Assembly: GCF_003610555.1 (NCBI RefSeq)
Contig: NZ_RAPQ01000008.1
Span: forward strand, 2,100,490-2,164,489
Length of the DNA stretch: 64,000 bases
Direction: 5' to 3'
Origin: Marinifilum flexuosum
Lineage (GTDB): Bacteria; Bacteroidota; Bacteroidia; Bacteroidales; Marinifilaceae
Part shown: one piece after another, positions 25,953 through 64,000 of the stretch
Layout of the letters: each line of letters begins with the position of its first letter
How positions within the stretch are numbered: position 1 is the first letter of the stretch
The notes under the pieces: model-generated
Seen by the model: only the letters and a program-made list of their open reading frames with translations
What the model was told of the DNA's origin: nothing
Databases searched by the model: none
Made by a program: the position numbers and the translations under genes

Positions 25953-25978
25953 AAAAACAAAGCTAAAGCTGAACGGAT

Positions 25979-27163: not shown

Positions 27164-27193
27164 ACTGTACTAGATAACAAAACAACAAACTAG

Positions 27194-27445
27194 ATGGCTG
27201 AGAAAATTGAAATCACCATTTGCTTGGGAAGCTCATGCTTTTCAAGAGGGAATGGTAAAGCACTTAAAGCAATTAATACATACTTAGAAGAGAATAAATT
27301 AAAAGATAAGGTTTTCTTTCATGGAGAACTTTGTACGGGCAATTGTGCTAAAGGACCAATTCTTAAAATTGATGATGAATTATACGAAGAGATTGATCCG
27401 GAAGGCGTAATTGAAATATTAAATGGGGTTTTTGGCCTTGTTTAA
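27194..27445 (+). CDS. Thioredoxin-like [2Fe-2S] ferredoxin (NuoE type)
   Basis: 83 residues. The four cysteines, CLGSSC and CTGNC, have the CxxxxC and CxxxC spacing of the thioredoxin-fold [2Fe-2S] family found in NuoE and hydrogenase HydC subunits. There is no extra helical domain, so it is a minimal free-standing form. It lies between the two sensor/phosphatase pairs, 30 bp after copy 1 of the phosphatase, and probably passes electrons to or from the hydrogenase-like sensors. Confidence 0.9.
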   Translation: MAEKIEITICLGSSCFSRGNGKALKAINTYLEENKLKDKVFFHGELCTGNCAKGPILKIDDELYEEIDPEGVIEILNGVFGLV

Positions 27446-27482
27446 TTTATGCTTTAGTTTCCAACCCTAAAACTCCCGTATT

Positions 27483-30897: not shown

Positions 30898-31093
30898 AGA
30901 GTGTAATTAGGTTTTCAATATTTGTTAATCAAATTTAATTAATTTTTTGGAATAAAGTGTGACCTCTTTTATCCTGATAATATTCTTTTAAGATAATTAT
31001 CGAATATGGGTATTAATTAGGGTGACTATATGCTTTTGCGGATTGACTTTATCAGCATAATTGTTATTTTTGAGAATCTCTATAATAAATCTC

Positions 31094-35226: not shown

Positions 35227-35236
35227 TTAACTATTT

Positions 35237-36391: not shown

Positions 36392-36399
36392 TAATAAGA

Positions 36400-45304: not shown

Positions 45305-47170
45305 ATGAAAGCAATTAAATTAAATATAAAAATGTTGTCGTACCTGGCTGCTTTCCTTATGGTGTTTGCCTTTGCAGCTTGTGATGATGACGATAATGGA
45401 GGTGGAAATTACGAAACCGCTTCATTAGATGCTTTAATTACTGAGGCAGAAAGCTTAATCGCAAATAGCGAGGAAGGAATTAGCCCGGGAGACTACAAGC
45501 CTGGCTCTAAGGTAGAACTTCAGGAGGTTATCAATTGGGTGAACTGGGCCGTTGAGCGCGCAGATTCTCAGGATGACATCGTTGATGCAGCGAATAAACT
45601 TCAAATTTATATCAATAAATTCAAAGGTAATATTGTACAACTAGCAGTACCGATTATCGATCAGACCAATGATACTTATATCAAGATCTCCGATAATATC
45701 TTACCGGTATTTGCTAAGAGTTTTACCATCGAAACTAAGATCTATGTAGTTGATTTAGCTCAAAAGGGATATTCAAACAACATTTTCGCAACTGAGCAAT
45801 CAGGTCCTGATAGTGGTTTTGTGATCCGTTACTTCAGCGATGGTAACATCCACTTGAATGTAGGTAACGGTAGCGGATGGGATCAGGTTGAGACCGGAGC
45901 AGGAACCATGAAAGCAGGAGAATGGATGCATGTTGCATTTGTAAATGAAATTTCTAGCCAGAAGCTTTACATTAATGGTGTTGAAGTGGCTGCTCAAACT
46001 AAAACATACTCACCAGCTCCAGTAGCATCTTTCGTACTTGGAAATGGTCCAACCTGGACTGATCGTGTTATCAATGGTATGCTAAAGGATGTGAGAGTTT
46101 GGTCTACAGCAAGAACTGCTGATCAGATTGCAAGCAACCAGGATGCTACATTCGAAGGAACTGAGGAAGGTTTGGCAATGTATTTCCCATTCGATGCTGA
46201 TTTAGGAACTAACTTCAAGGATGTTACCGGAAATTATACTGCAACTTTTAAAGGTAGTGTATCATGGGCAGCAGATGGAATTCCACCAGTAATCGAGCTT
46301 AACTACGATGGATTGAATGCAGTAATTGCCGATGCTTCAGATCTTAAGAACAGCGTTGTTGAAGGTGAAAATGATGGTGACTATCCTGTTGGAACAATTG
46401 AATATTTACAATCATTGATAGACGAAGGTACAGCATTGTTGACAGCGGCTAAAAAGCAGGCTGAGTTAGATGAGAAAGCTGAATTCATTACAAGCAAACT
46501 TACTTTGGTTCAGGAAAATTTGGTAGCTGATGCAACTGGTGTTTATGTTGATCGTGATAATCCAAAAGCAATTGGTTTCAGAATTACACCTAACTACACT
46601 CCTCAAGGTGATTACACTGTAGAGTTTGATGTACGTGTGAAGTCATTGGGAATGTACGGAACAGGAGAATTCTTTAACAATGGTAACTACGGTATTTGGG
46701 TGTATGGTTACAAAGAGTTAACTGAAGAAGCATTATTGTCATCAGGTGGACTTTGGAACTTTACCAATGCAGGTAGTGGTTGGCAAGGACCAAAAGCTGA
46801 AGCTCTTTCAATCAAGTCTGGAGAGTGGCAGCATGTTGCTATCGTTCACGATAACACAGCAAGAACAACAACTTTATATGTTGATGGCGTAGAAAAAGGT
46901 GTTCAAACCGACATAGGAGCTCCTGAAGTTTCAGGTTGGGGAGAAATGTGGCTTGGAAACGGCTGGGGTAAAATGCATGGTTCTATCAAAGATTTCCGTC
47001 TTTGGGATGTTGCACGTGATGCTGTTGATTTAGATGCAGATATCGATGGTACTGAAGCTGGACTAAATGCTTACTTCCCACTAAATAAAGTTGGTGGTGT
47101 TAAGTTTAAAGATGTTACCGGTAACTATCATGGAGAGATGAGAGGAATCTCATGGAATGTTATTAAGTAA
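45305..47170 (+). CDS. Surface glycan-binding lipoprotein with two LamG-like domains
   Basis: 621 residues. The signal is lipoprotein type (AFAACDDDDNGG), with an acidic surface-export stretch. The layout is a helical FIVAR-like bundle (about 35-110), a LamG/concanavalin domain (about 125-280, GEWMHVAFVNEISSQKLYINGVEV), a second helical bundle (about 335-415) and a second LamG domain (about 420-615, GEWQHVAIVHDNTARTTTLYVDGVEK). No catalytic motif is seen. Its place after SusD and its domains suggest the SGBP of this locus. It ends the operon at a strong terminator. The glycan bound is inferred only. Confidence 0.85.
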   Translation: MKAIKLNIKMLSYLAAFLMVFAFAACDDDDNGGGNYETASLDALITEAESLIANSEEGISPGDYKPGSKVELQEVINWVNWAVERADSQDDIVDAANKLQIYINKFKGNIVQLAVPIIDQTNDTYIKISDNILPVFAKSFTIETKIYVVDLAQKGYSNNIFATEQSGPDSGFVIRYFSDGNIHLNVGNGSGWDQVETGAGTMKAGEWMHVAFVNEISSQKLYINGVEVAAQTKTYSPAPVASFVLGNGPTWTDRVINGMLKDVRVWSTARTADQIASNQDATFEGTEEGLAMYFPFDADLGTNFKDVTGNYTATFKGSVSWAADGIPPVIELNYDGLNAVIADASDLKNSVVEGENDGDYPVGTIEYLQSLIDEGTALLTAAKKQAELDEKAEFITSKLTLVQENLVADATGVYVDRDNPKAIGFRITPNYTPQGDYTVEFDVRVKSLGMYGTGEFFNNGNYGIWVYGYKELTEEALLSSGGLWNFTNAGSGWQGPKAEALSIKSGEWQHVAIVHDNTARTTTLYVDGVEKGVQTDIGAPEVSGWGEMWLGNGWGKMHGSIKDFRLWDVARDAVDLDADIDGTEAGLNAYFPLNKVGGVKFKDVTGNYHGEMRGISWNVIK

Positions 47171-49680: not shown

Positions 49681-51975
49681 ATGAAGAAGATTAGTTTTAT
49701 AATACTATTATTTCTTGCGATAAGTGCGTCGGCAAGCAAGAATAACGATAAAGAGAAGAATAATACGGTTGATTTAGTGAATACTTTGATGGGGACCGAT
49801 TCGGAGCATGCACTTTCGAACGGGAATACCTATCCGGCAATTGCTTTACCCTGGGGAATGAATTTTTGGACTCCCCAGACCGGAAAAATGGGTGATGGAT
49901 GGGGATACACCTATGATGCAAAGAAAATCAGAGGGATTAAGCAGACACATCAACCAAGTCCTTGGATCAACGACTATGCAGCCTTTTCATTAATGGCCGT
50001 AACCGGAGAACTGAAATATAACGAAGAGGAGAGAGCATCTTGGTTTTCGCATAAAGCAGAAGAGGCAAGACCTTATTTTTATAGTGTTTATTTAGCAGAT
50101 TACGATGTGGTTGCTGAAGTAACGCCTACAGAGCGTGCTGCTATGTTTCGATTCACTTTTCCCGAGAATGAGAACTCATACATCTTACTGGATGGTTTTT
50201 TCAAAGGATCACAAGTGAAAATCATCCCTGAGGAGAGAAAGATTATTGGTTATTGTAGAAATAATTCGGGAGGTGTTCCTGATAATTTCCACAACTATTT
50301 TGTGGCTGAATTCGATAAGGATTTTGAGGTGACTCATACCTGGGATGCGAACAAAATTCAGAAGGGTTCAAAAGAAGCCGAGGGAGAACATGTTGGTGCC
50401 GTGATTGGTTTTAAAACAAAGAAAGGTGAAACGGTTCATGTGAAAGTAGCCTCTTCTTTTGTGAGTCCTGAACAAGCACAATTAAATCTTTCAAGAGAAA
50501 TTAGTGATAAGTCTTTCAATCAACTAAAAGAAGAAGCAAAACAAGCCTGGGAAAAGGAGTTTAATAGAATTCAAATTGAAGGTGGAACAGAGGAGCAAGT
50601 AAGAACTTTTTACTCTTGTTTATACCGAGTTCTTCTATACCCAAGGAAATTTTACGAGATAAATGATAATGATGAAGTAATTCATTACAGTCCTTACAAT
50701 GGAGAGATACTGCCTGGTTACATGTTTACAGATAATGGCTTTTGGGATACATTCCGGGCAGTATTTCCATTTTTTACTTTGATGTATCCTGATTTGAATG
50801 CTCAAATTATGGAAGGTTTAGCAAATACCTACAAAGAAAGTGGTTGGTTGCCTGAATGGGCGAGTCCTGGTCACAGGGGATGTATGATTGGTTCGAATTC
50901 AGCATCCTTGATTGCCGATTCTTATTTAAAAGGAATTCGTGGTTATGATATTGAAACCTTGTATGAGGCCATCATTAAAAACACCAAAGGTTACAATAAG
51001 GATGTTACTTCTGTAGGACGTTATGGTGCGGAATATTACAACGAGTTAGGATATGTGCCATACAATGTGGGAATAAATGAAAACACGGCCAGAACATTGG
51101 AATATGCTTATGCAGATTTCTGTATTTGGAAGCTGGCTCAGGAATTGAATCGTCCACAAGAAGAAATTGATTTATTTGCCAAGAGAGCGCAAAACTTTAA
51201 TAATGTATTCGATAAAGAGTCAGGCTTGATGCGTGGGAAGAATAAGGATGGTCAGTTCCAGACTCCTTTTAACCCTTTAAAATGGGGTGATGCCTTTACT
51301 GAAGGAAATAGCTTGCACTATACCTGGTCCGTTTTTCAAGATGTGAATGGGTTGATTAATCTTATGGGAGGTAAAGAGAAATTCATTTCTACTTTAGATG
51401 GAGTATTTGAAATGCCACCAAAGTTTGATGATTCATATTATGGATTTACAATCCATGAAATTCGTGAGATGCAGATTGTGAATATGGGGAACTATGCTCA
51501 CGGTAATCAGCCAATTCAGCACATGATTTACCTGTATAATTATGCCGGTGAGCCATGGAAAACTCAATCTCGTGTACGTGAAGTAATGGATAACTTGTAC
51601 ACATCGCAGCCTGATGGTTATTGTGGTGATGAAGATAATGGACAAACATCGGCTTGGTATGTGTTTAGTTCCATGGGATTCTATCCTGTTTGTCCGGGTA
51701 CCGATGAGTATGTTTTTGGTTCTCCTCTGTTTGACAAGGTAAAACTGACTCTTGAAAATGGAAAAACCTTTACCATAAGCAGTACAAATAATTCCAAAGA
51801 GAATGTTTTTGTAAAGGATATTAAATTGAATGGGAAATCTTTTAAGAAGAACTTCATTAAGCATGGAGATATCTTAAAAGGCGGAAAAATAGATTTTAAT
51901 ATGTCGAAGAAAGCGAATAGGAAGCGTGGAACATCAGAAGACAGCTATCCTTATTCGATGAGCAATCAGAAATAA
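49681..51975 (+). CDS. GH92 alpha-mannosidase (second, different subgroup)
   Basis: 764 residues with a type I-like signal (MKKISFIILLFLAISASA). Motifs differ from the first GH92: THQPSPWINDYAAFS replaces GFSHLHLSGTGC, the general-acid segment is TEGNSLHYTWSV, the +1-site segment is HGNQPIQHMIYLY (Gln in place of Glu) and the base region is GDEDNGQTSAWYV. It is therefore a GH92 of another subgroup and probably cleaves a different mannose linkage (alpha-1,3, alpha-1,6 or other) than its neighbour. Translation is probably coupled to the first GH92, as only 13 bp separate them. A 17-bp inverted repeat follows it. Confidence 0.93.
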   Translation: MKKISFIILLFLAISASASKNNDKEKNNTVDLVNTLMGTDSEHALSNGNTYPAIALPWGMNFWTPQTGKMGDGWGYTYDAKKIRGIKQTHQPSPWINDYAAFSLMAVTGELKYNEEERASWFSHKAEEARPYFYSVYLADYDVVAEVTPTERAAMFRFTFPENENSYILLDGFFKGSQVKIIPEERKIIGYCRNNSGGVPDNFHNYFVAEFDKDFEVTHTWDANKIQKGSKEAEGEHVGAVIGFKTKKGETVHVKVASSFVSPEQAQLNLSREISDKSFNQLKEEAKQAWEKEFNRIQIEGGTEEQVRTFYSCLYRVLLYPRKFYEINDNDEVIHYSPYNGEILPGYMFTDNGFWDTFRAVFPFFTLMYPDLNAQIMEGLANTYKESGWLPEWASPGHRGCMIGSNSASLIADSYLKGIRGYDIETLYEAIIKNTKGYNKDVTSVGRYGAEYYNELGYVPYNVGINENTARTLEYAYADFCIWKLAQELNRPQEEIDLFAKRAQNFNNVFDKESGLMRGKNKDGQFQTPFNPLKWGDAFTEGNSLHYTWSVFQDVNGLINLMGGKEKFISTLDGVFEMPPKFDDSYYGFTIHEIREMQIVNMGNYAHGNQPIQHMIYLYNYAGEPWKTQSRVREVMDNLYTSQPDGYCGDEDNGQTSAWYVFSSMGFYPVCPGTDEYVFGSPLFDKVKLTLENGKTFTISSTNNSKENVFVKDIKLNGKSFKKNFIKHGDILKGGKIDFNMSKKANRKRGTSEDSYPYSMSNQK

Positions 51976-52097: not shown

Positions 52098-53771
52098 ATG
52101 AAAACAAGAATACTATTCCTGGTAAGCATTTTATCTTTTTCTCTTTTGGTATCAGGAGCAGAGAAAAAAGAGAAGGGGTTTAAGATTAGCTATGAGCAAT
52201 ACAGCCATGGTAAACTGGTTCCCAATAGAGGTGTTTCAGCTACTGTGATCAATGGGATCGCGCAATTATCAAACTCTTCAAAAGTTGAAAGCTTCTTTAT
52301 TAATTACAAGTCAAAGAATGTGGTGAAGGTGCTGAAACTTAAGGATGGACAATTTCAGCAGATCACACCATTTTCAGAATTACCTACAGCAAAAGAAACC
52401 GACGAGAAGGAGACCATTTTAGGCTATGAATGTAAAAAAGCCAGTTTCCTTATTTTTTCAAATAGAGTAGATGTTTGGTACACCACTGAAGCAAAAGTAA
52501 GTGCATCGCCATCCTTATCTGTAATTATCGACAATGGATTGGTATTAAAATACGTGGTTAATGGGAATCGTACCATTCTGGCAAAATCCATTGAGAAGGA
52601 AAAGGGATTTATGGAATATCCTGCAGAAAATACTCCTAAAATTGACCAGGCACGTTATCGAGAGTTAATTATCAAATCAAGGTACAGGACCATTCCTGTA
52701 TTCGATAAGGAGCAAATCAATTTCCAGGGAGGTATAACGAATCCTAAGGAAAAAATCCTGAATCATACCTATCGTTTTTCAAAGGGTACGGTGATCATGA
52801 AAAAGATTAAAATGCCTGATTTGAATCCGGAAGGTAGTGTTTTTGTGAAGCTTACAAACTGGTCGAATGGTGATGCCTACGACAGAACAGGCTGTGTTTT
52901 TACCATTGCGAACAATGATAAAAATTCGATGCTGACAGCCCTGAAAAATGGAAAAGAGGAACTCCCTATCTATATTGACAAAAAAGGAGTGGAATACCAG
53001 GGAGTAGTGAGTGATGATAATTATACCGTACCTGTGGAGCTGATGAGATTCTTTACTTCATTTGGAGTGGGACATTTTAATGAGAAGAGACCGATCAATA
53101 ATTACAACTGGCAGGATTCTGTTGTCTACAAACAAGAAGTGACAGAATTAATTCCTTTACAAGAAGATGAAGTTTGGATTGGTGTATTCATTGGGAATTA
53201 TGACAAAGGTGGTCATAAGGTGAGCTTGGAGTTGAATTATTATCCTCCGTTTGAAGAGACTGCTGCGACAGAGAAATATATTCAACCACTATTTTATACT
53301 TTGAATGTGATGGAGGCAAGTGGTCAAAATTACGGTCGTATGTTTAAAAATGATACCCTGGCTGTGGAATTTACTTTAGATGAAAATGTGGAGGATTTAC
53401 AGTTGTTATATACCTCAACCGGTCACGGTGGATGGGGCAATGGTGATGAGTTTGTTCCTAAGGTAAACCAGTTGTTGATAGATGACGAGTTGATTTTTAA
53501 GCATGTTCCATGGAGAAGTGATTGTGCTACCTATAGAATGTCCAACCCAGCCTCTGGAAATTTTGGAAACGGATTGTCAAGTAGTGATCTTAGTCGTTCC
53601 AATTGGTGTCCTGCAACCTTAACATCGCCTTATTATATTCCTCTTAGTAATTTAAAAGCAGGGAAGCATGTTATTAAGGTAGTGATTGATCAAGGAGACG
53701 ATGAAGGATCCAGTTTTAACCATTGGAGTGTATCTGGTATTCTTGTTGGAAATAAAGAAATCTCTAAATAG
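52098..53771 (+). CDS. PNGase F-type peptide-N-glycosidase with extra N-terminal domain
   Basis: 557 residues with a signal peptide (cleaved near LVSGAEK). The C-terminal 340 residues are PNGase F: DAYDRTGCVFTI with the likely catalytic aspartate, STGHGGWGNGDEFVPK, HVPWRSDCATYRM and SRSNWCPATLTSP, which closely follow the two eight-stranded jelly-roll domains of the family. It hydrolyses the bond between asparagine and the first GlcNAc, releasing whole N-glycans. The first 190 residues form a separate beta domain (ETILGYECKKASFLI, RVDVWYTTEAKV) resembling the GLPGLI family and perhaps the N-terminal bowl domain of PNGase F-II. It is the key specificity gene of this locus. Confidence 0.94.
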   Translation: MKTRILFLVSILSFSLLVSGAEKKEKGFKISYEQYSHGKLVPNRGVSATVINGIAQLSNSSKVESFFINYKSKNVVKVLKLKDGQFQQITPFSELPTAKETDEKETILGYECKKASFLIFSNRVDVWYTTEAKVSASPSLSVIIDNGLVLKYVVNGNRTILAKSIEKEKGFMEYPAENTPKIDQARYRELIIKSRYRTIPVFDKEQINFQGGITNPKEKILNHTYRFSKGTVIMKKIKMPDLNPEGSVFVKLTNWSNGDAYDRTGCVFTIANNDKNSMLTALKNGKEELPIYIDKKGVEYQGVVSDDNYTVPVELMRFFTSFGVGHFNEKRPINNYNWQDSVVYKQEVTELIPLQEDEVWIGVFIGNYDKGGHKVSLELNYYPPFEETAATEKYIQPLFYTLNVMEASGQNYGRMFKNDTLAVEFTLDENVEDLQLLYTSTGHGGWGNGDEFVPKVNQLLIDDELIFKHVPWRSDCATYRMSNPASGNFGNGLSSSDLSRSNWCPATLTSPYYIPLSNLKAGKHVIKVVIDQGDDEGSSFNHWSVSGILVGNKEISK

Positions 53772-53823: not shown

Positions 53824-56127
53824 ATGAAAAACTATTATCTACTCAGCCTTGTTATTCTAACCGTTTTTTTCAGTGTGTCCTGCACATCGAATGTGAGAAA
53901 AAATAAGGGTATAAACCTGATCCCTTATCCTAACTCGCTAGCAAAACAGAAGGGGAATTTTAAGGTAAATCGGAAGACATTTATTACGATGAATTCTGAG
54001 AAGTCGCTTGAAATAGCAAAACTGCTGGTTCATAGATTTGAACCGCATTTAAACATACCTGTTCAATCTGAACTAACAGGAGAAAGCTCCCCAAATGCAA
54101 TTCATCTTTCTGTAGATTCAAATTACAATATCCCTTTCGAAGGGTATAAGCTGAAGGTGAATGAGAAGTCGGTGACTTTGTTGGCATCATCTGAAAATGG
54201 CTTGTTCTATGGGATGCAAACCCTTTTGCAACTGATCTATATTGAGGATAAGGGAAGAGGTGAGATTCCTTGTGTGCAGATAGCTGATAGTCCCCGATTT
54301 GCATGGAGAGGAATGCATCTGGATGTATCAAGACATTTTATGCCGACCTCATTTATTAAGAAGTACATTGATTATTTGGCTGCCAATAAATTGAATGTTT
54401 TTCATTGGCATTTGGTTGATGGAACTGGTTGGCGCATTGAAATAAAATCTCACCCGGAGCTGACTGATATAGGTGCTTGGAGAGTGGTGAAGGATGCTGA
54501 TAAGCCATGGAAAGATATCGAAGCATGGAAGGAAGGCGATGACAGACCAAAATATGGAGGATACTATTCTCAAGAGGAGATCAAAGAAATTGTAAAATAT
54601 GCACAAGGTCGTTTTATTACAGTTTTACCTGAAATAGAACTGCCTGGCCATTCGGAAATTGTCTTCGATTGTTATCCTCATTTGGTTTGTAAAGACAGCA
54701 GAGGAAAAAGCTTAAAAAATATCGGAGTATACTGTGCCGCCAATAAGGAGTCTTACCAACTGTTGGAAGATGTTTTGGATGAAGTAATAGAGCTTTTTCC
54801 ATCAGAATATATACATATTGGTGGTGATGAAGTAAACAAAAGCAATTGGAAGAAATGTGCGGCCTGTAAGAATTTGATGCGGAAACACAAGTACGATGAG
54901 AAAAGCCTGCAAAGCCATTTTGTGAATCATTTCGATAAATACCTGTTATCTAAAGGACGCAAGTTAATTGGTTGGCATGAGATTTTGGAAGGAGATTTAT
55001 CTTCATCGGCAAGTATCATGTATTGGGGTGGAATGAAGGGGCTCGAAAAAGCATTAAAGGAAGGCCATCCAACAGTTAATTCAACAGGTACATCTTATTA
55101 TTTTGACCATTATCAAAGTTCAAGTAAGAATGAACTACCCGCTTGGGGTGGATTTTCTCCACTTCATCAGGTTTATGAATTGAATCCACTTTCTCATATT
55201 TCAGATACTTCTTTGTATCAGAATGTGTTGGGTGTTCAGGCAAATGTATGGACGGAACATATGAAGACACCTGAAAAGGTGGAGTATATGATTTTCCCAA
55301 GAATATTCGCATTGGCTGAGAATGCCTGGACCAAAGAAGAGAATAAGTCATGGGAGAGATTTAGAACTACTGTTGATGAATTTATAGCGGACTATCAAAA
55401 GGCAGGTGCTAATTGCTCTATGAGTGCGTATCGTCCAATCATAAGTACGAAATTAGATACTCTCACCAAAATGCTTGAAGTGAGAATTGAACCTGAATTG
55501 GAAGCAGAGGTCTATTATACCTTAGATGGAAGTGAGCCTACGATAGAAAAAGAACACTTGTATACAGAACCATTCTTGTTGGATTCGACAAAAGTGTTAA
55601 AAGCGATTTCTGTAAAAAACGCTAAGGTGTTAACTGAAATGGAAACAGAACGGCTTATTGTGCATAAAGCGCGAGCCTGTGAAATAGATCTTAAAAATCA
55701 ACCTTATTCAAAGTATGCAGGAAAAGGAGGTATGACCTTGCTTGACCTTGAAAGAGGTGGCAAAATATGGGGAAATGGTAAGTGGCTCGGCTTCTTAAAT
55801 AAGGATTTAGATGCATCGATAAAGCTAAATACTGCCACTAATATAAAAAGCGTTTCTCTTAGTTGTATAACTGATAAGGGAGCAAGCATCCTGTTTCCAG
55901 AATCTATTCAAGTTTTTGTATCGAAGGATGGGAAAAACTATCAGCTAGCAGGAGAATGGTCAAAAACGGATTCCATTAGAAGTGTGGAGGAGCAAGGCGT
56001 GGAAAATAAGCTGTTAACTGTTGATTTGGAGGTTTTAAATTTTGAGTTTGTTAAAGTGATAGCCATTTGCCCTAAGCAAGAGAGAAGAGGGACTTTTATT
56101 TTTATCGATGAGTTGATTGTTGAGTAG
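53824..56127 (+). CDS. GH20 beta-N-acetylhexosaminidase lipoprotein
   Basis: 767 residues from the ATG at 53824 (MKNYYLLSLVILTVF), which gives a lipoprotein signal with VSCTSN; the frame upstream overlaps the PNGase F gene and is not used. The N-terminal GH20b domain (about 35-155) precedes the TIM barrel, with RGMHLDVSRHFMP, NVFHWHLVDGTGW and the catalytic Asp-Glu in YIHIGGDEVNK. A C-terminal chitobiase-type fibronectin-like domain (YYTLDGSEPT) and a discoidin-like end complete it. It removes terminal beta-GlcNAc by substrate-assisted retention. In this locus it would remove core or antenna GlcNAc from released N-glycans. Confidence 0.95.
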   Translation: MKNYYLLSLVILTVFFSVSCTSNVRKNKGINLIPYPNSLAKQKGNFKVNRKTFITMNSEKSLEIAKLLVHRFEPHLNIPVQSELTGESSPNAIHLSVDSNYNIPFEGYKLKVNEKSVTLLASSENGLFYGMQTLLQLIYIEDKGRGEIPCVQIADSPRFAWRGMHLDVSRHFMPTSFIKKYIDYLAANKLNVFHWHLVDGTGWRIEIKSHPELTDIGAWRVVKDADKPWKDIEAWKEGDDRPKYGGYYSQEEIKEIVKYAQGRFITVLPEIELPGHSEIVFDCYPHLVCKDSRGKSLKNIGVYCAANKESYQLLEDVLDEVIELFPSEYIHIGGDEVNKSNWKKCAACKNLMRKHKYDEKSLQSHFVNHFDKYLLSKGRKLIGWHEILEGDLSSSASIMYWGGMKGLEKALKEGHPTVNSTGTSYYFDHYQSSSKNELPAWGGFSPLHQVYELNPLSHISDTSLYQNVLGVQANVWTEHMKTPEKVEYMIFPRIFALAENAWTKEENKSWERFRTTVDEFIADYQKAGANCSMSAYRPIISTKLDTLTKMLEVRIEPELEAEVYYTLDGSEPTIEKEHLYTEPFLLDSTKVLKAISVKNAKVLTEMETERLIVHKARACEIDLKNQPYSKYAGKGGMTLLDLERGGKIWGNGKWLGFLNKDLDASIKLNTATNIKSVSLSCITDKGASILFPESIQVFVSKDGKNYQLAGEWSKTDSIRSVEEQGVENKLLTVDLEVLNFEFVKVIAICPKQERRGTFIFIDELIVE

Positions 56128-56251: not shown

Positions 56252-57679
56252 ATGCATAGAAGAAATTTTCTAAAAAACTCAATCCTATTTACCGGAGGAC
56301 TAAGTCTTATTGGTACAAAAGGATTTAGTTTAACAAATGAAGTAAAATACATCTCAAATAGACCACCAGCAGCCGAAAGGAAATTTGTAAGTCCAGCTGT
56401 TGATGCGATCATTGCTAAGGTTAAAAAGTCAATTGCGAACAAAGAGTTGGCATGGATGTTTGAAAATTGCTTTCCAAATACATTAGACACAACGGTGACT
56501 TATTCTGAAAAAGATGGAAGACCCGATTCTTTTGTGATCACCGGAGATATTCATGCCATGTGGTTAAGGGACTCAACAGCCCAGGTTTGGCCATATCTGC
56601 CACTTGTAAATGATGATCGGAAATTGAAAGATCTTTTTCAAGGGCTCATCAACCGACAGAGCAAATGTATCAACATCGATCCTTACGCTAACGCGTTTAA
56701 CAAAGGTGCCGATGGATCACATTGGGAAAGTGATCAAACAGAGATGAAGCCTGAATTACATGAGAGAAAATGGGAAATAGATTCGTTGTGTTATGCAATT
56801 AGGCTGGCTTATCATTATTGGAAGAAAACCAATGATACGACATGTTTTGATCGTGCCTGGGTTGAGGCTATGAAATCTGTTGTGAGAACATTCAAAGAGC
56901 AACAGCGAAAGGAAGGTAAGGGGACATACTCTTTTTTAAGAACTACCAGCAAACCTACCGACTCACAACCGGGAAATGGTTATGGAAATCCAATTAATCC
57001 TGTTGGTCTTATTGTTTCTTCATTTCGTCCTTCTGATGATGCTACCATTTTCCCATTCTTGATACCATCAAATTATTTTGCCGTAGTTTCACTTAAGCAG
57101 TTGACAGAGATCTTAAATTCTTTGGGTATTGAAAAAGAACTGTCTGCATCTGCTTTACTATTGGCAGAAGAGGTGGAGGAAGCTTTACAGAAATATGCTT
57201 CCACTGATCACCTTACTTATGGCAAAACACTGGCCTTTGAGGCAGATGGCTTCGGCAACCAACTATTTATGGATGATGCGAACATTCCAAGCTTACTTTC
57301 TTTGCCTTATTTGGGAGCAGTAGATCAGGATTCTAAGCTGTATCAGAATACAAGAAAATTCATTCTGAGTAAGAATAATCCTTGGTTCTTTGAGGGAAAG
57401 GCTGCTGAAGGTATTGGAGGTCCGCATGTGGGAGTAGACATGATTTGGCCAATGAGTATCATTATGAGGGCAATGACCTCTGACAATGATGAGGAGATTC
57501 TGAAATGTCTTAAAATGTTAATGAATACACATGCTGGAACGGGTTTTATGCATGAGACCTTCCATAAGAATAAGCCTGAACATTTTACTCGTTCATGGTT
57601 TGCCTGGGCAAATACCTTGTTTGGAGAATTGATTTTGAAGATTTACAATGAAAAGCCAGAATTACTAAAACTTATATAA
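56252..57679 (+). CDS. GH125 exo-alpha-1,6-mannosidase
   Basis: 475 residues from the ATG at 56252, which gives a twin-arginine-like signal MHRRNFLKNSILFTGG; the frame reaches 56201 without a better start. GH125 hallmarks are FVITGDIHAMWLRDSTAQVWPYL, INIDPYANAF and FLIPSNYFAVVSL. The likely acid is the first Asp of DDATIFPF (D262) and the likely base the Glu of GFMHETF (E435). Their spacing of 173 equals that of the D220/E393 pair I recall for the characterised Clostridium enzyme. GH125 removes alpha-1,6-mannose from N-glycan cores. It is followed directly by the GH65 gene (1 bp gap). Confidence 0.95.
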   Translation: MHRRNFLKNSILFTGGLSLIGTKGFSLTNEVKYISNRPPAAERKFVSPAVDAIIAKVKKSIANKELAWMFENCFPNTLDTTVTYSEKDGRPDSFVITGDIHAMWLRDSTAQVWPYLPLVNDDRKLKDLFQGLINRQSKCINIDPYANAFNKGADGSHWESDQTEMKPELHERKWEIDSLCYAIRLAYHYWKKTNDTTCFDRAWVEAMKSVVRTFKEQQRKEGKGTYSFLRTTSKPTDSQPGNGYGNPINPVGLIVSSFRPSDDATIFPFLIPSNYFAVVSLKQLTEILNSLGIEKELSASALLLAEEVEEALQKYASTDHLTYGKTLAFEADGFGNQLFMDDANIPSLLSLPYLGAVDQDSKLYQNTRKFILSKNNPWFFEGKAAEGIGGPHVGVDMIWPMSIIMRAMTSDNDEEILKCLKMLMNTHAGTGFMHETFHKNKPEHFTRSWFAWANTLFGELILKIYNEKPELLKLI

Positions 57680-57680
57680 T

Positions 57681-59720
57681 ATGACTGTTTACTATAGATA
57701 CTTATACCTTTTTATTTTTTGTTTATTGATTCACATAGGTGTGAATGCCCAAACAAGGCAAGGATCTGGTTGGGTAATTGAAACAAGTGATTATTCCGAC
57801 TATACTGGAGTTTCAATAGCCAATGGACGCATAGGACTGCTACCATCCAAAGAACCGGGCAAAACGAAAGCTATTATTTTGAATCATGTTTTCGATAAGG
57901 AGTCAAAATATGGTGTTAGCAAGGTTTTGTTGGGTATTAATTTTGCAAACCTTGAAATAGTAATTAAGGGAGATACTCTAAAAACTGAGAATTGTACAGC
58001 ATGGACCCAAAAGCTGGATATGAAGAAAGCTGCTTTTACTACAACTTGTAGGTTTAAGAACTATGCTGATTTTTCTTTTACATCTTATGCATTGCGAGGC
58101 ATGCCTTATACTGGTATGATCGATGTTGAAATTACTCCATTGTTGAGAAATTTGAAAGTACAGGTAGGGGGTCAAATCGTTTGTCCTAACGAATATAAAA
58201 ATGTTGAATCTGGTTTTCGTGTGATGCAAGATTTGGATGCCAGAATGCCAGTTTTACAAACGGTAGCTGATAGTCCCTTTGGAAAGCACCACATGGCAAC
58301 CTCTGCTACTTTCATATTTGAAGAGGAGACTCCGGAATTAAAACGTAATGTTAAAGGCCCATTTCATCATGAGTTGGTTTTTACAAAGGATTTGAAAAAG
58401 GGGGAGAAGTATAGCTTTGCCTGGGCAGGGGCCGTATGTACTTCTCAAAACTTCGATGATCCTAAGAGTGAGTCTGAAAGAATGGTTGTCTTTCAGCTGT
58501 TGGGAAATAAAGAATCAGTAATCGAAAGACACCAAAAGCTGTGGGAAGAATTATGGCAAGGTGATATTGTAATTGAGGGAGATATTGAATCTCAGCAGGA
58601 TGTTCGCTTAGCTTTATATCATTTGTATTCTTTCTCGAGAGATGATTCGAATTTAAGTATTGCTCCAATGGGCTTGTCGGCTCAAGGTTATAACGGACAT
58701 GTCTTCTGGGATACTGAATTGTGGATGTATCCGCCATTGTTAGTGTTTAATCAGGATATTGCCCATTCACTTTTAAACTACAGGTTTCACAGGCTTGAAA
58801 AGGCTAAAAAGAAAGCTGCCAATTTTGGATATGAGGGAGCCATGTTTCCCTGGGAATCTGACGATACAGGTGAGGAGGCTACTCCAACCTGGGCATTGAC
58901 GGGAACTTTCGAACATCATATTACTGCTGATATTGGAATCGCTTTTTGGAACTACTACCGGGTGAGCAAAGATAAACAATGGCTAAAGGAAGTTGGATTT
59001 CCTGTATTGAAAGAGGTAGCTGATTTCTGGGTGAGTAGGTCTGTTAAAAATGAAGATGGTTCTTATTCCATTAACAATGTAGTAGGAGCCAATGAATTTT
59101 ACCATCATGCTGATGACAATGCTTTTACAAATGGTGCCGCCAAAACAGCATTGGAATTTGCAGTGAAGGCTGCGAAAGAACTTGACCTGTCTCCCAATAG
59201 TCAATGGAGTAAAATTTCCAAAGCTCTGTGCTTTCACTATTTCCCAAGCGGAGCAATGAAAGAAAACAGAACCTACAATGGGGAGGTGATCAAACAGGCC
59301 GACGTGAATTTATTGGCTTACCCACTGAATATTGTGAATAAGCCTGAAGATATTCGCAGAGACTTGGCTTATTATGAGCCGAAAATGGCTCCTGAAGGAC
59401 CAGCTATGTCTCACTCTGTACTTGCTGTTCTTTATGCTCGTTTGGGAGAAGCGGATAAGGCATTCGAGTTATTTAAGAGAGCTTACGAACCAAATAAAAG
59501 ACCTCCTTTTGGAGCTTTGGCTGAATCTGCATTTAGCCACAATCCATACTTTGCAACGGGTGCTGGGGGGATGCTACAATCTGTAATTTTTGGTTTTGCA
59601 GGCCTAAAAATAAACGATGAGGGGATTATTCAAGGTAGTACATGTCTTCCAAAGCAGTGGAGAAGCTTGACCATTAAGGGGATTGGTTGTGATAAGAAAA
59701 CATATGTGATTGAAAATTAA
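57681..59720 (+). CDS. GH65 alpha-glucosidase, kojibiose-hydrolase type
   Basis: 679 residues with a signal peptide ending in NAQTRQ. GH65 motifs include GHVFWDTELWMYPPLL and the general acid in VGANEFYHHADDNAFTN (E472). The position where hydrolases have a base glutamate reads GALAESAFSHNPYF (E615). The alpha-1,2-glucosidase of Flavobacterium johnsoniae (FjGH65A) is, as I recall, described with E472 and E616, a near-identical layout, so this is probably a hydrolase rather than a phosphorylase. Predicted activity is release of alpha-1,2-linked glucose, exported to the periplasm. The gene starts 1 bp after the GH125 stop. Another relative is ATHL1/PGGHG of collagen Glc-Gal-Hyl units. Confidence 0.88.
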   Translation: MTVYYRYLYLFIFCLLIHIGVNAQTRQGSGWVIETSDYSDYTGVSIANGRIGLLPSKEPGKTKAIILNHVFDKESKYGVSKVLLGINFANLEIVIKGDTLKTENCTAWTQKLDMKKAAFTTTCRFKNYADFSFTSYALRGMPYTGMIDVEITPLLRNLKVQVGGQIVCPNEYKNVESGFRVMQDLDARMPVLQTVADSPFGKHHMATSATFIFEEETPELKRNVKGPFHHELVFTKDLKKGEKYSFAWAGAVCTSQNFDDPKSESERMVVFQLLGNKESVIERHQKLWEELWQGDIVIEGDIESQQDVRLALYHLYSFSRDDSNLSIAPMGLSAQGYNGHVFWDTELWMYPPLLVFNQDIAHSLLNYRFHRLEKAKKKAANFGYEGAMFPWESDDTGEEATPTWALTGTFEHHITADIGIAFWNYYRVSKDKQWLKEVGFPVLKEVADFWVSRSVKNEDGSYSINNVVGANEFYHHADDNAFTNGAAKTALEFAVKAAKELDLSPNSQWSKISKALCFHYFPSGAMKENRTYNGEVIKQADVNLLAYPLNIVNKPEDIRRDLAYYEPKMAPEGPAMSHSVLAVLYARLGEADKAFELFKRAYEPNKRPPFGALAESAFSHNPYFATGAGGMLQSVIFGFAGLKINDEGIIQGSTCLPKQWRSLTIKGIGCDKKTYVIEN

Positions 59721-59723
59721 TTT

Positions 59724-61736
59724 ATGAGAGTAAGAGTAGTGTTCCTCGCTTTGTGCGCTGGATTGATGAGTTTATCCTGTTCTTTGGATAATAGAGTGGA
59801 GGTGGAATCACCCAATGGAGAATTGAAGTATGAATTGCATGTTAACGATCAAGGTCAACTGTCCTATGAATTATCAGTGGGGCAGCGTAAGTTGATTAAT
59901 GAATCTAAACTGGGGCTGGAAGCTACAGAGAGCAGACTTTCTATCGAAAAAGTAAAGATCGTTGATAAGAAAATTGTAGAAGTTGATGAGACCTGGAATG
60001 CTGTGTGGGGCCAAAACAAAAGGATTAAAAACAACTATAATCAGTTGCTTTTAGATTTGATTACCTCAAAAGGACTTAAGCTTCAATTACAAGTTAAAGC
60101 ATATGATGATGGTCTTGGTTTCAGGTATAAAATTCCTGAGCAAACAGGTGTTGATAGCATTTTGATTACCGATGAAAATACAGAGTTTAACCTGGCTGAA
60201 AATGGTACTGCCTGGTCTATTCCTGCTAATTTCGATAGCTACGAGATGCTATACAGAACAACTAAAATTGATGAGGTAAAAGGTGCCAATACTCCTGTAA
60301 CCTTTAAAACCAATGATGGAGTTTATTTAAGTATTCATGAAGCAAACCTGACAGACTATGCTGGCATGACTTTGCAAAATACAGGAGGAACAAATTTTGA
60401 AGCCAATTTGGTACCTTGGCCTGATGGAGTGAAAGTTAAAGCCAAAGGTTCTCTTTTGACTCCCTGGCGAACCATTACAATTAGTAAGAATGCAGCAGGA
60501 TTAGTTGAATCAAATCTGATTCAAAATTTAAATGAGCCATGTGCATTGAAGGATACCGATTGGATTGAACCTATGAAATACATTGGTATTTGGTGGGGCA
60601 TGCACCTGGGAGTGGAAACCTGGACTATGGGCCCAAAACATGGAGCCACAACTGAAAATATGAAGGCGTATATTGATTTTGCTGCCGATCACAATGTTCA
60701 GGCAGTGCTTGCCGAAGGCTGGAATACAGGTTGGGAAAACTGGGGGAAAGCACGTGCTTTTGACCAGCAAACTCCTTATGCTGACTTTGACTTTGATGAG
60801 GTGGTTCGATATACAAAAGCAAAAGGTGTGGAACTGATTGGCCATCATGAAACCGGTGGCGACTATATTTACTATGAGGAGTGCATGGACAAGGCTTTTT
60901 CCATGCTTAGAGATAATGGTATTCGAGTTCTAAAAACTGGATATGCCGGTCCAATACCAAATGGTCATTACCATCATGGACAGAAGATGGTACAACACTA
61001 CAGAAAGGTTGTGGAAAAGGCTGCAAAGTACAATTTAATGATCGACGCTCACGAACCAATTAAAGCAACAGGAATCAGGCGTACATATCCCAACATGATG
61101 ACTCGAGAAGGTGCACGAGGCATGGAGTGGAATGGCTGGAGCGAAGGAAATCCTCCCGAGCATTACGTGATTCTTCCTTTTACCAGATGTTTGGGTGGAC
61201 CTATTGACTATACACCAGGTACATTTGATATTCTTTACAAAAACAGGAAGGAGTATACCAAATGGAACAGCAACGATAAAGGAAATAGCCGAGTGAATAC
61301 AACGCTTGCCAAACAATTGGCTCTTTGGGTCTGCCTGTATAGTCCATTGCAAATGGCATCGGATATGGTAAGAAATTACGAAGATCAGCCAGCATTTGAA
61401 TTCTTTGAATTACTTCCTGCCGATTTTGATGAATCAAAAGTTCTATTGGCGGAGATTGGTGATGTGTATTCGGTTGCTCGTCGAAAAGCCAAGAACTGGT
61501 ATATTGGAACAATTACTGATGAGAACAGAAGAAATCTAGAGCTTGACTTATCCTTTTTAGAGGATGGTAAAAAATATATGGCAAGTATTTTTGAGGATGG
61601 AGATAATGCAAATCTCGAAAATAACCCTACAGATATTAATATTCGAAAAGTAGAAGTTGATTCGAAGACTGTATTGTCTGTAAAAATGATTGAAAGTGGA
61701 GGTCAGGCAGTTGCAATTGTTCCTATTGTGAATTAA
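59724..61736 (+). CDS. GH97 inverting alpha-glucosidase lipoprotein (SusB-like)
   Basis: 670 residues with a lipoprotein signal (LMSLSCSLDN). The N-terminal beta-super-sandwich (about 25-285) is followed by the TIM barrel and a short C-terminal domain. Three glutamates, HHETGG (E376), DAHEP (E444) and GMEWN (E468), have the spacing of SusB E439, E508 and E532. No nucleophile aspartate is seen where retaining GH97 enzymes have one (VLKTGYAG). It should therefore be the inverting, alpha-glucosidase-type branch rather than the retaining alpha-galactosidase branch. It starts 3 bp after GH65 and probably acts with it on alpha-linked glucose. Confidence 0.92.
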   Translation: MRVRVVFLALCAGLMSLSCSLDNRVEVESPNGELKYELHVNDQGQLSYELSVGQRKLINESKLGLEATESRLSIEKVKIVDKKIVEVDETWNAVWGQNKRIKNNYNQLLLDLITSKGLKLQLQVKAYDDGLGFRYKIPEQTGVDSILITDENTEFNLAENGTAWSIPANFDSYEMLYRTTKIDEVKGANTPVTFKTNDGVYLSIHEANLTDYAGMTLQNTGGTNFEANLVPWPDGVKVKAKGSLLTPWRTITISKNAAGLVESNLIQNLNEPCALKDTDWIEPMKYIGIWWGMHLGVETWTMGPKHGATTENMKAYIDFAADHNVQAVLAEGWNTGWENWGKARAFDQQTPYADFDFDEVVRYTKAKGVELIGHHETGGDYIYYEECMDKAFSMLRDNGIRVLKTGYAGPIPNGHYHHGQKMVQHYRKVVEKAAKYNLMIDAHEPIKATGIRRTYPNMMTREGARGMEWNGWSEGNPPEHYVILPFTRCLGGPIDYTPGTFDILYKNRKEYTKWNSNDKGNSRVNTTLAKQLALWVCLYSPLQMASDMVRNYEDQPAFEFFELLPADFDESKVLLAEIGDVYSVARRKAKNWYIGTITDENRRNLELDLSFLEDGKKYMASIFEDGDNANLENNPTDINIRKVEVDSKTVLSVKMIESGGQAVAIVPIVN

Positions 61737-62084: not shown

Positions 62085-64000
62085 ATGAAGCGCTTTATAG
62101 GAATTTCAATTCTACTGTTTTTTTGTTTTAATGGCTTTGGTCAGTATTCCCAATATGTAAATCCTTTTATTGGAACTACGAATTTTGGAACCACAAATCC
62201 AGGGGCCATTGTGCCACGAGGAATGGTTTCGGTAACTCCATTTAATGTTTCCGGATCTGATATCAATAAATACGATAAGGATGCACGCTGGTGGTCTACA
62301 CCATACTCATGGGATAACTCTTACCTTACCGGATTTTCTCATGTAAATTTGAGTGGAGTGGGCTGTCCGGAACTTGGTGTTATTTTATTGATGCCAACCA
62401 CAGGAAAAGTCAATGCTGACCACAAGCAATATGGTTCTGTTATGAAGAACCAAAAGGCAACACCAGGCTATTATGCCACTAATTTGGAAAAGTACAGCAT
62501 CAAGGCAGAACTGAGTTCTACAAAACGCACTGGCATAAGTCGATATACCTTTCCAAAAGGAGAATCAAATATTCTATTAAATCTTGGATTAGGATTAACC
62601 AACGAAGTAGGAGCTAAGGTGAGAATCGTTAATAACAAGGAAATTGAAGGTTCTCGAATGACAGGTACTTTCTGTTACAATGATGGTTCGGAGCGTCCTG
62701 TCTATTTTGTGGCCCGATTCAGTAAACCAGCAAAGAATTTTGGAGTATGGAAAAACATGCCAAAACTACAAGCAGAAGCAGCTTGGAGCAAAACTTCGGG
62801 TGAATACAAATACTACGATGGATTTACCCGGGAAATGTTTGGTAACGAAATTGGAGCTTATTTCACATTTGATACAGAAGAAAACGAACAAATTATTGTA
62901 GAAGTTGGGGTTTCCTATGTTAGCATCGAGAATGCTCGATTAAACCTTAAAGCAGAGTCGAATGATTTTGATTTTGAGAAGACTAGAGCAGAAGCAGAAA
63001 AAGAGTGGAACGATATTTTAGGTAGAGTTAAGGTTGCAGGTGGAACAAAAGATCAGAAAACCATTTTCTACACGGCTTTGTATCATACTCAAATTCATCC
63101 GAATATCATTAATGATGTAAATGGGCAATATCCAGCAATGGAATCTTTCGAAATTAAGGAAACCAATGATTGCAATCGCTACACAGTGTTTTCTCTTTGG
63201 GATACCTACCGAAACTTTCACCCATTAATGGCTCTGCTTTATCCACAGGAACAATTGGATATGGTTCGTTCCATGGTGGATATGTATAAGGAAAGTGGAT
63301 GGTTGCCTAAATGGGAGCTAAACAGCAAGGAAACACATGTGATGGAAGGTGATCCTTCTATTCCTGTGATTGTTGATTCTTACTTGCGAGGATTGACCGA
63401 CTTTGATGTGGAAGCGGCTTATGCTGCCATGTACAAATCGGCAACAATGGAAGGGAAAAACAACAAATTGCGTCCTGATATCGATCATTACCTGGCAGAA
63501 GGATATGTGCCAATTGAAGAGGAATTCGATAATTCGGTATCGCATGCATTGGAATATTATATTGCCGATTGGAACCTGGCTCAGTTTGCAAAAGCTCTTG
63601 GGAAGAAAGCGGATTATCAGAAATTTCTGAATCAATCCTTAGGCTATAAAAATTACTATTCGAAAGAATTTGGCGTATTGAGACCTAAACTTGCCGATGG
63701 TACTTTCCTAAAGAATTTCGATCCAAAGCAAGGTGAAAACTTTGAACCATGTCCTGGATTCCACGAGGGAACATCATGGCAATATACTTTTTGCGTACCT
63801 CATGACATTAAAGGACTGACCAAAATAATGGATGGCAAAAAGAATTTCGTAAGCAAGCTACAGAAAGTATTCGATGAGGATCTTTACGATATGGCCAACG
63901 AGCCGGATATCCATTACCCATTCCTGTTCAACTATTTTAAAGGGGAAGAGTGGAGAACTCAGAAAGAAGTTCGTCGTTTGGTGGATGAATACTATAAAAA
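62085..64000 (+). CDS. GH92 alpha-mannosidase (third), 3' end outside window
   Basis: 638 codons are visible from the ATG at 62085; the frame is open at the right edge. The signal peptide ends near NGFGQYSQ. GH92 features are YVNPFIGTTNFGTTNPGAIVPRG, GFSHVNLSGVGCPELG and SLWDTYRNFHP. The acid region is FHEGTSWQYTFCVPHD, and NEPDIHYPFLFNYF replaces NEPSHHITYLY, a third variant distinct from the other two copies. The base region (GNxDxGQMSAW type) is expected about 60 residues beyond the edge. Its own promoter with ATTA heptamers suggests it heads a further operon of the same locus. Confidence 0.93.
   Translation, partial: MKRFIGISILLFFCFNGFGQYSQYVNPFIGTTNFGTTNPGAIVPRGMVSVTPFNVSGSDINKYDKDARWWSTPYSWDNSYLTGFSHVNLSGVGCPELGVILLMPTTGKVNADHKQYGSVMKNQKATPGYYATNLEKYSIKAELSSTKRTGISRYTFPKGESNILLNLGLGLTNEVGAKVRIVNNKEIEGSRMTGTFCYNDGSERPVYFVARFSKPAKNFGVWKNMPKLQAEAAWSKTSGEYKYYDGFTREMFGNEIGAYFTFDTEENEQIIVEVGVSYVSIENARLNLKAESNDFDFEKTRAEAEKEWNDILGRVKVAGGTKDQKTIFYTALYHTQIHPNIINDVNGQYPAMESFEIKETNDCNRYTVFSLWDTYRNFHPLMALLYPQEQLDMVRSMVDMYKESGWLPKWELNSKETHVMEGDPSIPVIVDSYLRGLTDFDVEAAYAAMYKSATMEGKNNKLRPDIDHYLAEGYVPIEEEFDNSVSHALEYYIADWNLAQFAKALGKKADYQKFLNQSLGYKNYYSKEFGVLRPKLADGTFLKNFDPKQGENFEPCPGFHEGTSWQYTFCVPHDIKGLTKIMDGKKNFVSKLQKVFDEDLYDMANEPDIHYPFLFNYFKGEEWRTQKEVRRLVDEYYK

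What the first reader, a model, noticed from the sequence alone, without database searches (positions are those of the whole stretch)
57681..61736. N-glycan locus equipped for the glucose cap of Glc1-3Man9GlcNAc2
Between the mannosidases lie a GH65 with the residue layout of a kojibiose (alpha-1,2) hydrolase (E472 and E615) and an inverting SusB-like GH97. The glucose cap of immature high-mannose N-glycans is Glc-alpha1,2-Glc-alpha1,3-Glc-alpha1,3-Man, so an alpha-1,2-glucosidase followed by a broad alpha-glucosidase would fit it exactly. PNGase F, GH92, GH125 and GH20 in the same run handle the rest. I know of no described PUL for glucosylated N-glycans. An alternative target is Glc-Gal-hydroxylysine of collagen.
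Basis: partly seen in the sequence, partly recalled or inferred. Interest (0 to 1): 0.8.

Follow-up and report, generated by a model that had tools for sequence, protein, structure and literature searches.

The report
Glucose-cap enzymes in N-glycan locus
A marine bacterium carries, inside a gene set that looks built to strip the sugar trees off other organisms' proteins, two enzymes predicted to remove the glucose cap of unfinished trees; close relatives keep the pair in the same place, but no experiment has shown what it acts on.

Summary
Window 57681-59720 encodes a GH65 hydrolase of the FjGH65A (kojibiose, alpha-1,2-glucosidase) type with E472/E615 in place; 59724-61736 encodes an inverting, PspAG97A/SusB-like GH97. 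They follow GH125 with gaps of 1 and 3 bases and precede a GH92. The locus is a high-mannose N-glycan utilization locus: SusC/D, three GH92, a PNGase F-II-like amidase, GH20, GH125 and, just past the window edge, an SSF transporter and a GH130 closest to UhgbMP.

In 15 of 15 Marinifilum/Labilibaculum-family loci examined, GH65, GH97, a following GH92 and GH130 occur together, while PNGase F (5 of 14) and GH20 (2 of 14) come and go. GH65 loci examined outside the family (0 of 72, 0 of 18, 0 of 20; sets overlap slightly) show no GH92 nearby. All 15 GH65s, and two flavobacterial ones beside GH125, carry His475 where the dextran enzyme has Glu475 at subsite +2.

Removing the cap of Glc1-3Man9GlcNAc2 is the best fit (about 0.5), but it is not shown, and alpha-1,2-glucose occurs only on the short-lived Glc3 form. 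Collagen and dextran fit worse. New variant of a known kind, moderate interest.

The parts
57681..59720 (+). GH65, predicted inverting alpha-1,2-glucosidase (FjGH65A type), export signal
   Evidence: Pfam; best solved relative 7fe3 5e-188; E472/E615, W391, E392, T407, K538 kept, E475 to H475
59724..61736 (+). GH97, predicted inverting alpha-glucosidase, lipoprotein signal
   Evidence: Pfam; 5hqc 1.4e-167, SusB 5.7e-138, retaining alpha-galactosidase 7.6e-57; motifs
56252..57679 (+). GH125, predicted alpha-1,6-mannosidase
   Evidence: Pfam 1.5e-173; 3on6 and BT3781 2p0v about 1e-194
62085..64000 (+). third GH92, runs off the window; ends 4322 in L084
   Evidence: Pfam; 6f8z 1.9e-93; linkage not assigned
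53824..56127 (+). GH20, predicted beta-hexosaminidase, lipoprotein signal
   Evidence: Pfam 4.7e-109
52098..53771 (+). PNGase F-II-like amidase
   Evidence: Pfam N-glycanase N and C and PNGase_F-II_N; 4r4z PNGF-II 1.8e-135
49681..51975 (+). second GH92, predicted alpha-1,2-mannosidase
   Evidence: 2wvx chains 1136 bits
47391..49667 (+). first GH92, lipoprotein signal
   Evidence: Pfam; 6f91 9.6e-184; linkage not assigned
45305..47170 (+). lipoprotein with two Laminin_G_3 domains, likely surface glycan binder
   Evidence: Pfam; role inferred from position
43713..45284 (+). SusD-like lipoprotein
   Evidence: Pfam
40533..43694 (+). SusC-like TonB-dependent receptor
   Evidence: Pfam Plug and CarbopepD_reg_2
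37609..40137 (-). 842-aa protein with weak Kelch matches, likely sensor/regulator
   Evidence: a similar-sized unlabelled ORF lies beside SusC in relatives; role inferred
34228..37497 (+). LacI regulator, MFS transporter, ROK kinase
   Evidence: Pfam; LacI-MFS-ROK near the same locus in L169, L171, L177, L179, L183

Best explanation
The locus is a high-mannose N-glycan utilization locus of the Marinifilum family that also handles glucosylated (immature, ER-type) glycans. PNGase F, where present, frees the glycan from glycopeptides and SusC/D imports it. In the periplasm GH65 removes the outer alpha-1,2-glucose and GH97 the alpha-1,3-glucoses, which uncovers the A arm for the alpha-1,2-mannosidase. 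GH92s strip alpha-1,2- and alpha-1,3-mannose and GH125 alpha-1,6-mannose. A Man-beta-1,4-GlcNAc unit passes the SSF carrier and is split by GH130 in the cytoplasm. Shown by sequence: families, catalytic residues, gene order, conservation. Inferred: linkage specificity, localisation, order of steps, and that the natural substrate is Glc1-3Man9GlcNAc2.
For: GH65 nearest to FjGH65A with catalytic and kojibiose-binding residues kept. GH97 of inverting alpha-glucosidase type; a related GH97, FjGH97A, is next best on nigerose (alpha-1,3) and PspAG97A acts on kojibiose (PMC10316084 passages). N-glycan enzymes in the same run: PNGF-II-like, GH125, a GH92 close to 2wvx, UhgbMP-like GH130. GH65 followed by GH97, GH92 and, further on, GH130 in 15 of 15 related loci, while PNGase F is in 5 of 14 and GH20 in 2 of 14. 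GH92 near GH65 in 0 of 72, 0 of 18 and 0 of 20 loci outside the family. His475 in 15 of 15 family rows and both L013/L015 against 2 of 105 others. No GH66 or GH31 in the 35 of 38 listed window ORFs scanned. Seven of 69 N-glycan identifications in a marine diatom were Glc1Man9GlcNAc2 (PMC8678454 passages).
Against: No activity data. Alpha-1,2-glucose occurs only on Glc3, which is trimmed first; the diatom passages name Glc1 only, which would need GH97 but not GH65. Subsite +2 is altered, so acceptor preference cannot be read from FjGH65A. FjGH97A prefers alpha-1,6 links, so the GH97 is not specific for this cap. His475 follows one clade and counts as few events. PNGase F is missing from 9 of 14 family loci. 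GH20 as a periplasmic lipoprotein does not fit a chitobiose core cut only after cytoplasmic GH130. GH97s near this one also occur alone (G032).
Confidence: 0.5

Rival explanations
1. The pair removes alpha-glucose decorations (Glc-alpha-1,2 and others) from a different mannose-rich glycan of marine eukaryotes, for example an undescribed protist or algal N-glycan or alpha-mannan side chain; the mannosidases then follow.
For: Explains why an alpha-1,2-glucosidase is kept in 15 of 15 loci although Glc3 is short-lived. PNGase F is dispensable (5 of 14). In L013 and L015 the GH65 lies with GH97, GH125, GH3 and a sulfatase, and no PNGase F or GH92 was seen in the stretches. Algal and protist N-glycan enzymes are said to be undiscovered (PMC10154615 passages).
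Against: No such glycan is named in the papers I saw. The UhgbMP-like GH130 and PNGF-II-like enzyme point to an ordinary N-glycan core.
Confidence: 0.22
2. GH65 and GH97 digest alpha-1,2-branched dextran-type or other alpha-glucan oligosaccharides, as in FjDexUL, and merely sit in the mannosidase operon.
For: The same two families work together in FjDexUL (PMC10316084 passages), and the GH66-GH31-GH97-GH65 order is found in L150 and L152. GH65s of the wider clade lie in alpha-glucoside-like contexts with GH13, LacI, GH32 or PfkB.
Against: No GH66 or GH31 in the 35 of 38 listed window ORFs scanned. FjGH65A and the DexUL GH65s form a separate clade. Glu475, which binds isomaltose at +2, is replaced by His.
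Confidence: 0.13
3. The GH65 removes glucose from Glc-alpha-1,2-Gal-hydroxylysine of collagen, as vertebrate PGGHG does.
For: PGGHG is the next nearest solved GH65 and shares W391, E392, K538 and the catalytic pair. Marinifilaceae were found on animal and plant detritus in the deep sea (PMC9765461, start of abstract in the listing).
Against: 630 bits to FjGH65A against 210 to PGGHG; Thr407 kept where PGGHG has Tyr. No beta-galactosidase family among the window ORFs scanned, GH97 would be idle, and the neighbours are mannosidases.
Confidence: 0.06
4. The GH97 removes alpha-galactose caps from fungal-type alpha-mannan, and GH65 is incidental.
For: A GH97 of a Bacteroides mannan system removes alpha-galactose from S. 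pombe mannan (PMC10154615 passage).
Against: The window GH97 is far from the retaining alpha-galactosidases (7.6e-57 against 1.4e-167) and lacks the KVDF motif. No GH76 endo-mannanase among the window ORFs scanned.
Confidence: 0.03

Closest known systems
FjGH65A, kojibiose hydrolase of Flavobacterium johnsoniae (7fe3, 7fe4; PMC8626586)
   Same: Acid E472, base E616 (E615 here), W391, E392, T407, K538; signal peptide; near a GH97 gene
   Different: 43.6% identity over 642 columns; E475 to H, R74 to K; works in a dextran locus; separate clade
FjDexUL branched-dextran locus (PMC10316084)
   Same: SusC/D plus the GH97-GH65 pair
   Different: No GH66 or GH31 here in the ORFs scanned; GH92, GH125, PNGase F, GH20 and GH130 instead
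Bacteroides thetaiotaomicron high-mannose N-glycan locus (BT3987 operon; PMC10154615 passages)
   Same: Three GH92 in series; one GH92 here close to the 2wvx chains (recalled as BT3990 of that operon)
   Different: PNGase F instead of GH18 endoglycosidase; GH65 and GH97 added; GH130 in the run
PNGase F N-glycan locus of G392 (unnamed, same class)
   Same: SusC/D, PNGase F, GH92s, GH130, SSF
   Different: No GH65 or GH97 in the 40 kb fetched
Vertebrate PGGHG (9sd7), collagen glucosidase
   Same: GH65 hydrolase with the same acid/base pair
   Different: 34.6% identity over 379 columns; Tyr at the Thr407 place
Bacterial GH99 endo-alpha-1,2-mannosidases
   Same: Can act on glucosylated N-glycans (PMC11025385 passages)
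   Different: Cut off the Glc-Man unit as endo-enzymes; here exo-glucosidases are predicted. I did not search the genome for GH99
ER glucosidase I (GH63) and glucosidase II (GH31), recalled
   Same: Same two reactions in the same order, if the reading holds
   Different: Unrelated enzyme families; glucosidase I does not hydrolyse kojibiose (PMC8626586 Discussion)

Membership tests
FjGH65A-type GH65 alpha-1,2-glucosidase | General acid and base Glu | tested here: met
   E472 and E615
FjGH65A-type GH65 alpha-1,2-glucosidase | Kojibiose-binding W391, E392 (and T407) | tested here: met
   all three kept
FjGH65A-type GH65 alpha-1,2-glucosidase | +2 residue Glu475 as in the dextran enzyme | tested here: not met
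   His475; bears on acceptor, not on the alpha-1,2 step
FjGH65A-type GH65 alpha-1,2-glucosidase | Groups with hydrolases, not phosphorylases | tested here: met
   best hit 7fe3 5e-188 against 5e-59 for a phosphorylase; tree holds only one phosphorylase, on a long branch
FjGH65A-type GH65 alpha-1,2-glucosidase | Activity on kojibiose | not testable with these tools
   needs an assay
PGGHG (collagen glucosidase) | Tyr at the Thr407 place | tested here: not met
   Thr407; one feature only
Inverting (SusB-like) GH97 alpha-glucosidase | Conserved Glu set, no Asp nucleophile | tested here: met
   motif meaning recalled
Inverting (SusB-like) GH97 alpha-glucosidase | Cleaves alpha-1,3-glucose | not testable with these tools
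   needs an assay
High-mannose N-glycan utilization locus | SusC/D with glycan-releasing enzyme and GH92 | tested here: met
   releasing enzyme seen in 5 of 14 family loci
High-mannose N-glycan utilization locus | Enzyme for the Man-beta-1,4-GlcNAc core | tested here: met
   GH130 closest to UhgbMP, 1.5e-153
High-mannose N-glycan utilization locus | Induction by high-mannose glycoprotein | not testable with these tools
   needs growth and transcript data
FjDexUL-type dextran locus | GH66 and GH31 dextranases with the pair | tested here: not met
   none in the 35 of 38 listed window ORFs scanned

The most novel reading that the evidence does not exclude
One marine bacterial family has a dedicated deglucosylation module for ER-type Glc1-3Man9GlcNAc2: a GH65 with an altered +2 subsite as the counterpart of glucosidase I in an unrelated enzyme family, and a GH97 as the counterpart of glucosidase II. 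It would be the first utilization locus known to be aimed at glucosylated N-glycans.
Probability: 0.45. Interest if true: 0.65.

Novelty: new variant of a known kind. Interest (0 to 1): 0.5.

Why it matters
If true, sediment bacteria feed on unfinished protein sugar trees of lysed eukaryotic cells, using a glucosidase I-like step taken from GH65. That would give tool enzymes for glucosylated N-glycans and a genomic marker for turnover of intracellular glycoproteins in marine detritus. The test is simple: two proteins and one labelled glycan. If the substrate proves to be another Glc-alpha-1,2-bearing mannose glycan, that glycan itself would be news.

Tried and rejected
Strict co-inheritance of GH65 and GH97: a first GH97 tree put the L013/L015 copies next to the Marinifilaceae clade, as in the GH65 tree, but its rows were mostly GH97s found beside GH65. 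With five GH97s from an independent search added, a lone GH97 of G032 fell nearer. Claim dropped.

PNGase F as the defining partner: 11 of 395 class genomes have it. The 10 other than the own genome show no GH65 or GH97 in the stretches fetched (40 kb, one 38.6 kb), and 4 of 10 show GH92 or GH125. Within the family it is patchy (5 of 14 loci). The pair goes with the mannosidases, not with PNGase F.

Class-wide co-location: 24 of 395 genomes match GH65 and 149 of 395 match the second GH92; among the listed places only the own genome has both close together (compared by eye). The GH92 search scored two candidates a genome and its list was cut, so this is a weak negative.

Linkage of the first and third GH92 could not be read from PDB similarity. 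The GH13 and GH3 tallies printed count longer family names by prefix and are not used. The own-genome phosphorylase is poorly aligned and not used there. No structure prediction or docking was made.

Papers: searched open-licence PMC text; subscription papers and preprints are not held. None of the titles and abstract starts listed describes a locus for glucosylated N-glycans. I saw passages by term search for PMC8537180, PMC10316084, PMC10154615, PMC6298971, PMC11025385, PMC8678454, PMC7773692, PMC12325347 and PMC9765461, and passages plus the whole Discussion of PMC8626586.
Full report
What is there. The window is contig 1, bases 2100490-2164489, of a 5.17 Mb genome in 16 contigs. It looks like a Marinifilum: the nearest named GH65 relatives are Marinifilum sp. 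D737 (94%) and M. breve (93%). The two ORFs are as stated. Pfam gives, in order, SusC, SusD, a LamG protein, GH92, GH92, PNGase F, GH20, GH125, GH65, GH97, GH92. The gaps are 1 base (GH125-GH65) and 3 bases (GH65-GH97), which suggests one transcript; 348 bases precede the third GH92. Past the window edge come the rest of that GH92, an SSF transporter and a GH130.

The locus is an N-glycan locus. The amidase is closest to PNGF-II (1.8e-135) and the GH125 to 3on6 and BT3781. One GH92 scores 1136 bits to the 2wvx chains, recalled as BT3990 of the Bacteroides high-mannose operon. The GH130 is closest to UhgbMP (1.5e-153), recalled as a Man-beta-1,4-GlcNAc phosphorylase. A review (PMC10154615, passages) gives these families these roles.

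The GH65. The best solved relative is FjGH65A (5e-188); human PGGHG follows at 3e-61 and a kojibiose phosphorylase at 5e-59. With residue roles from PMC8626586 and PMC10316084, acid E472 and base E616 are window E472 and E615, and W391, E392, T407 and K538 are kept. E475, which binds the +2 glucose of isomaltose in FjGH65A, is His; R74, which blocks the 6-OH of the +1 glucose, aligns with Lys. In 124 rows (PGGHG and the own phosphorylase set aside), His475 is in 15 of 15 Marinifilaceae rows and 2 of 2 of L013/L015, but in 2 of 105 others, where Pro (53) and Glu (31) are commonest; position 74 is Lys in 9 and Glu in 6 of the 15. In a quick tree the 15 form one clade (SH-aLRT 100) with L013/L015 as sister (90); FjGH65A lies in another clade with L150 and L152, whose loci hold GH66, GH31, GH97 and GH65 like FjDexUL. 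His475 therefore counts as few evolutionary events.

The GH97. Best relatives are 5hqc (recalled as PspAG97A, 1.4e-167), 8wg0 (recalled as FjGH97A, 4.7e-143) and SusB (5.7e-138); a retaining alpha-galactosidase follows at 7.6e-57. The motifs are those of the inverting type; of the three other GH97s in this genome two look alike and one is of the retaining type. PMC10316084 (passages) reports FjGH97A best on alpha-1,6 links, then nigerose, and PspAG97A on alpha-1,6 links and kojibiose. Action on alpha-1,3-glucose is plausible, not specific.

Conservation. G774, G783 and G784 share contig lengths with L004, L006 and L009 and are not counted twice. In 15 of 15, GH65 is followed by GH97 and a GH92, with a GH130 further on. 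GH92 lies upstream in 14 of 14 (L007 is cut); in G776 the second GH92 is split into two ORFs. GH125 is seen in 11 (8 beside GH65, 3 beside the ROK kinase); for the other 4 the stretch held does not reach the ROK region. PNGase F is in 5 of 14 and GH20 in 2 of 14. The loci were found through their GH65, so GH65 itself is there by choice; what is informative is that GH97, GH92 and GH130 always accompany it. Of the 33 genomes of this family searched, own included, 10 have a close GH65.

Controls. GH65 loci outside the family have GH92 nearby in 0 of 72 named, 0 of 18 order-wide and 0 of 20 class-wide cases. GH125 occurs in 2 of 72 (L013, L015), 0 of 18, 0 of 20; GH97 in 3, 4 and 0; GH130-like genes in 4, 1 and 0. 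The sets overlap a little (L137/L058, L139/L079, L140/L080 share contig lengths) and some flanks are cut. In reverse, 10 PNGase F loci outside the own genome show no GH65 or GH97 in the stretches fetched; 4 of 10 show GH92 or GH125. Other GH65 loci lie with GH13, LacI, SusC/D, GH32, PfkB or trehalase-like genes.

How it most likely works. Release by PNGase F where present, uptake by SusC/D, uncapping by GH65 then GH97, demannosylation by GH92 and GH125, import by SSF and phosphorolysis by GH130. Families, residues and conservation are shown; linkage, place and order are inferred. N-termini, judged by eye, suggest exported GH65, PNGase F and two GH92, and lipoprotein GH97, GH20, SusD, LamG protein and first GH92. 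The LamG protein has CDDDD after its lipobox, recalled as a surface-export signal. The role of GH20 is unclear: if the Man-beta bond is cut only by cytoplasmic GH130, a periplasmic GH20 cannot act on the chitobiose core and may trim GlcNAc-capped arms.

Weak points. Alpha-1,2-glucose exists only as the outermost glucose and is trimmed first. In the diatom Phaeodactylum 7 of 69 N-glycan identifications were Glc1Man9GlcNAc2, and the passages I saw name no Glc2 or Glc3 form. A strictly kept alpha-1,2-glucosidase is more than Glc1 needs. Either Glc3 from lysed cells or lipid-linked precursor matters, or another Glc-alpha-1,2 glycan is the target. Hence about one in two.

Collagen and dextran. PGGHG is more distant and has Tyr at the Thr407 place; no beta-galactosidase family, GH66 or GH31 is among the 35 of 38 listed window ORFs scanned. 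Both are lowered, not excluded.

Novelty. The paper searches listed no paper on a locus for glucosylated N-glycans. A 2025 survey of 2,154 loci in 79 Marinilabiliales genomes predicts mannan use among others; its text holds no GH92, GH65 or N-glycan (PMC12325347, term counts and passages), so this locus may be in it under mannans. Bacterial GH99 enzymes already are known to accept glucosylated substrates (PMC11025385 passages). I call it a new variant of a known kind.

Noticed in passing
L013:1-21989 and L015:1-22004: Two Flavobacteriaceae MAG loci hold GH3, DUF4838, GH97, GH125, GH65 and a sulfatase together (L013 also GH18 and a phosphatase-like gene); their GH65s share His475 with the Marinifilum family.
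   Followed up: partly
window 31061-33157 (+): Secreted trypsin-like protease with PKD domain and C-terminal sorting domain, about 1 kb upstream of the LacI-MFS-ROK genes; could supply glycopeptides.
   Followed up: no
window 24243-30520 (+): Two successive pairs of [FeFe]-hydrogenase-like protein plus SpoIIE phosphatase.
   Followed up: no
window 37609-40137 (-): 842-aa protein with only weak Kelch matches, beside SusC; an ORF of 842-849 aa lies there in several relatives. Possibly an unusual locus regulator.
   Followed up: no
L012:1-14665 and L140:1-13386: GH65 with GH97, a different GH130-like gene and sugar transporters (L140 also GH13): another mannose/glucose mix without GH92.
   Followed up: no
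G032 contig 2, 280987-282981 (L206/L207): A GH97 nearer to the window's than those of L013/L015, with no GH65 or GH92 labelled in the stretch fetched.
   Followed up: partly
L180:10390-12682: In G776 the second GH92 reads as two ORFs; broken gene or draft error.
   Followed up: no
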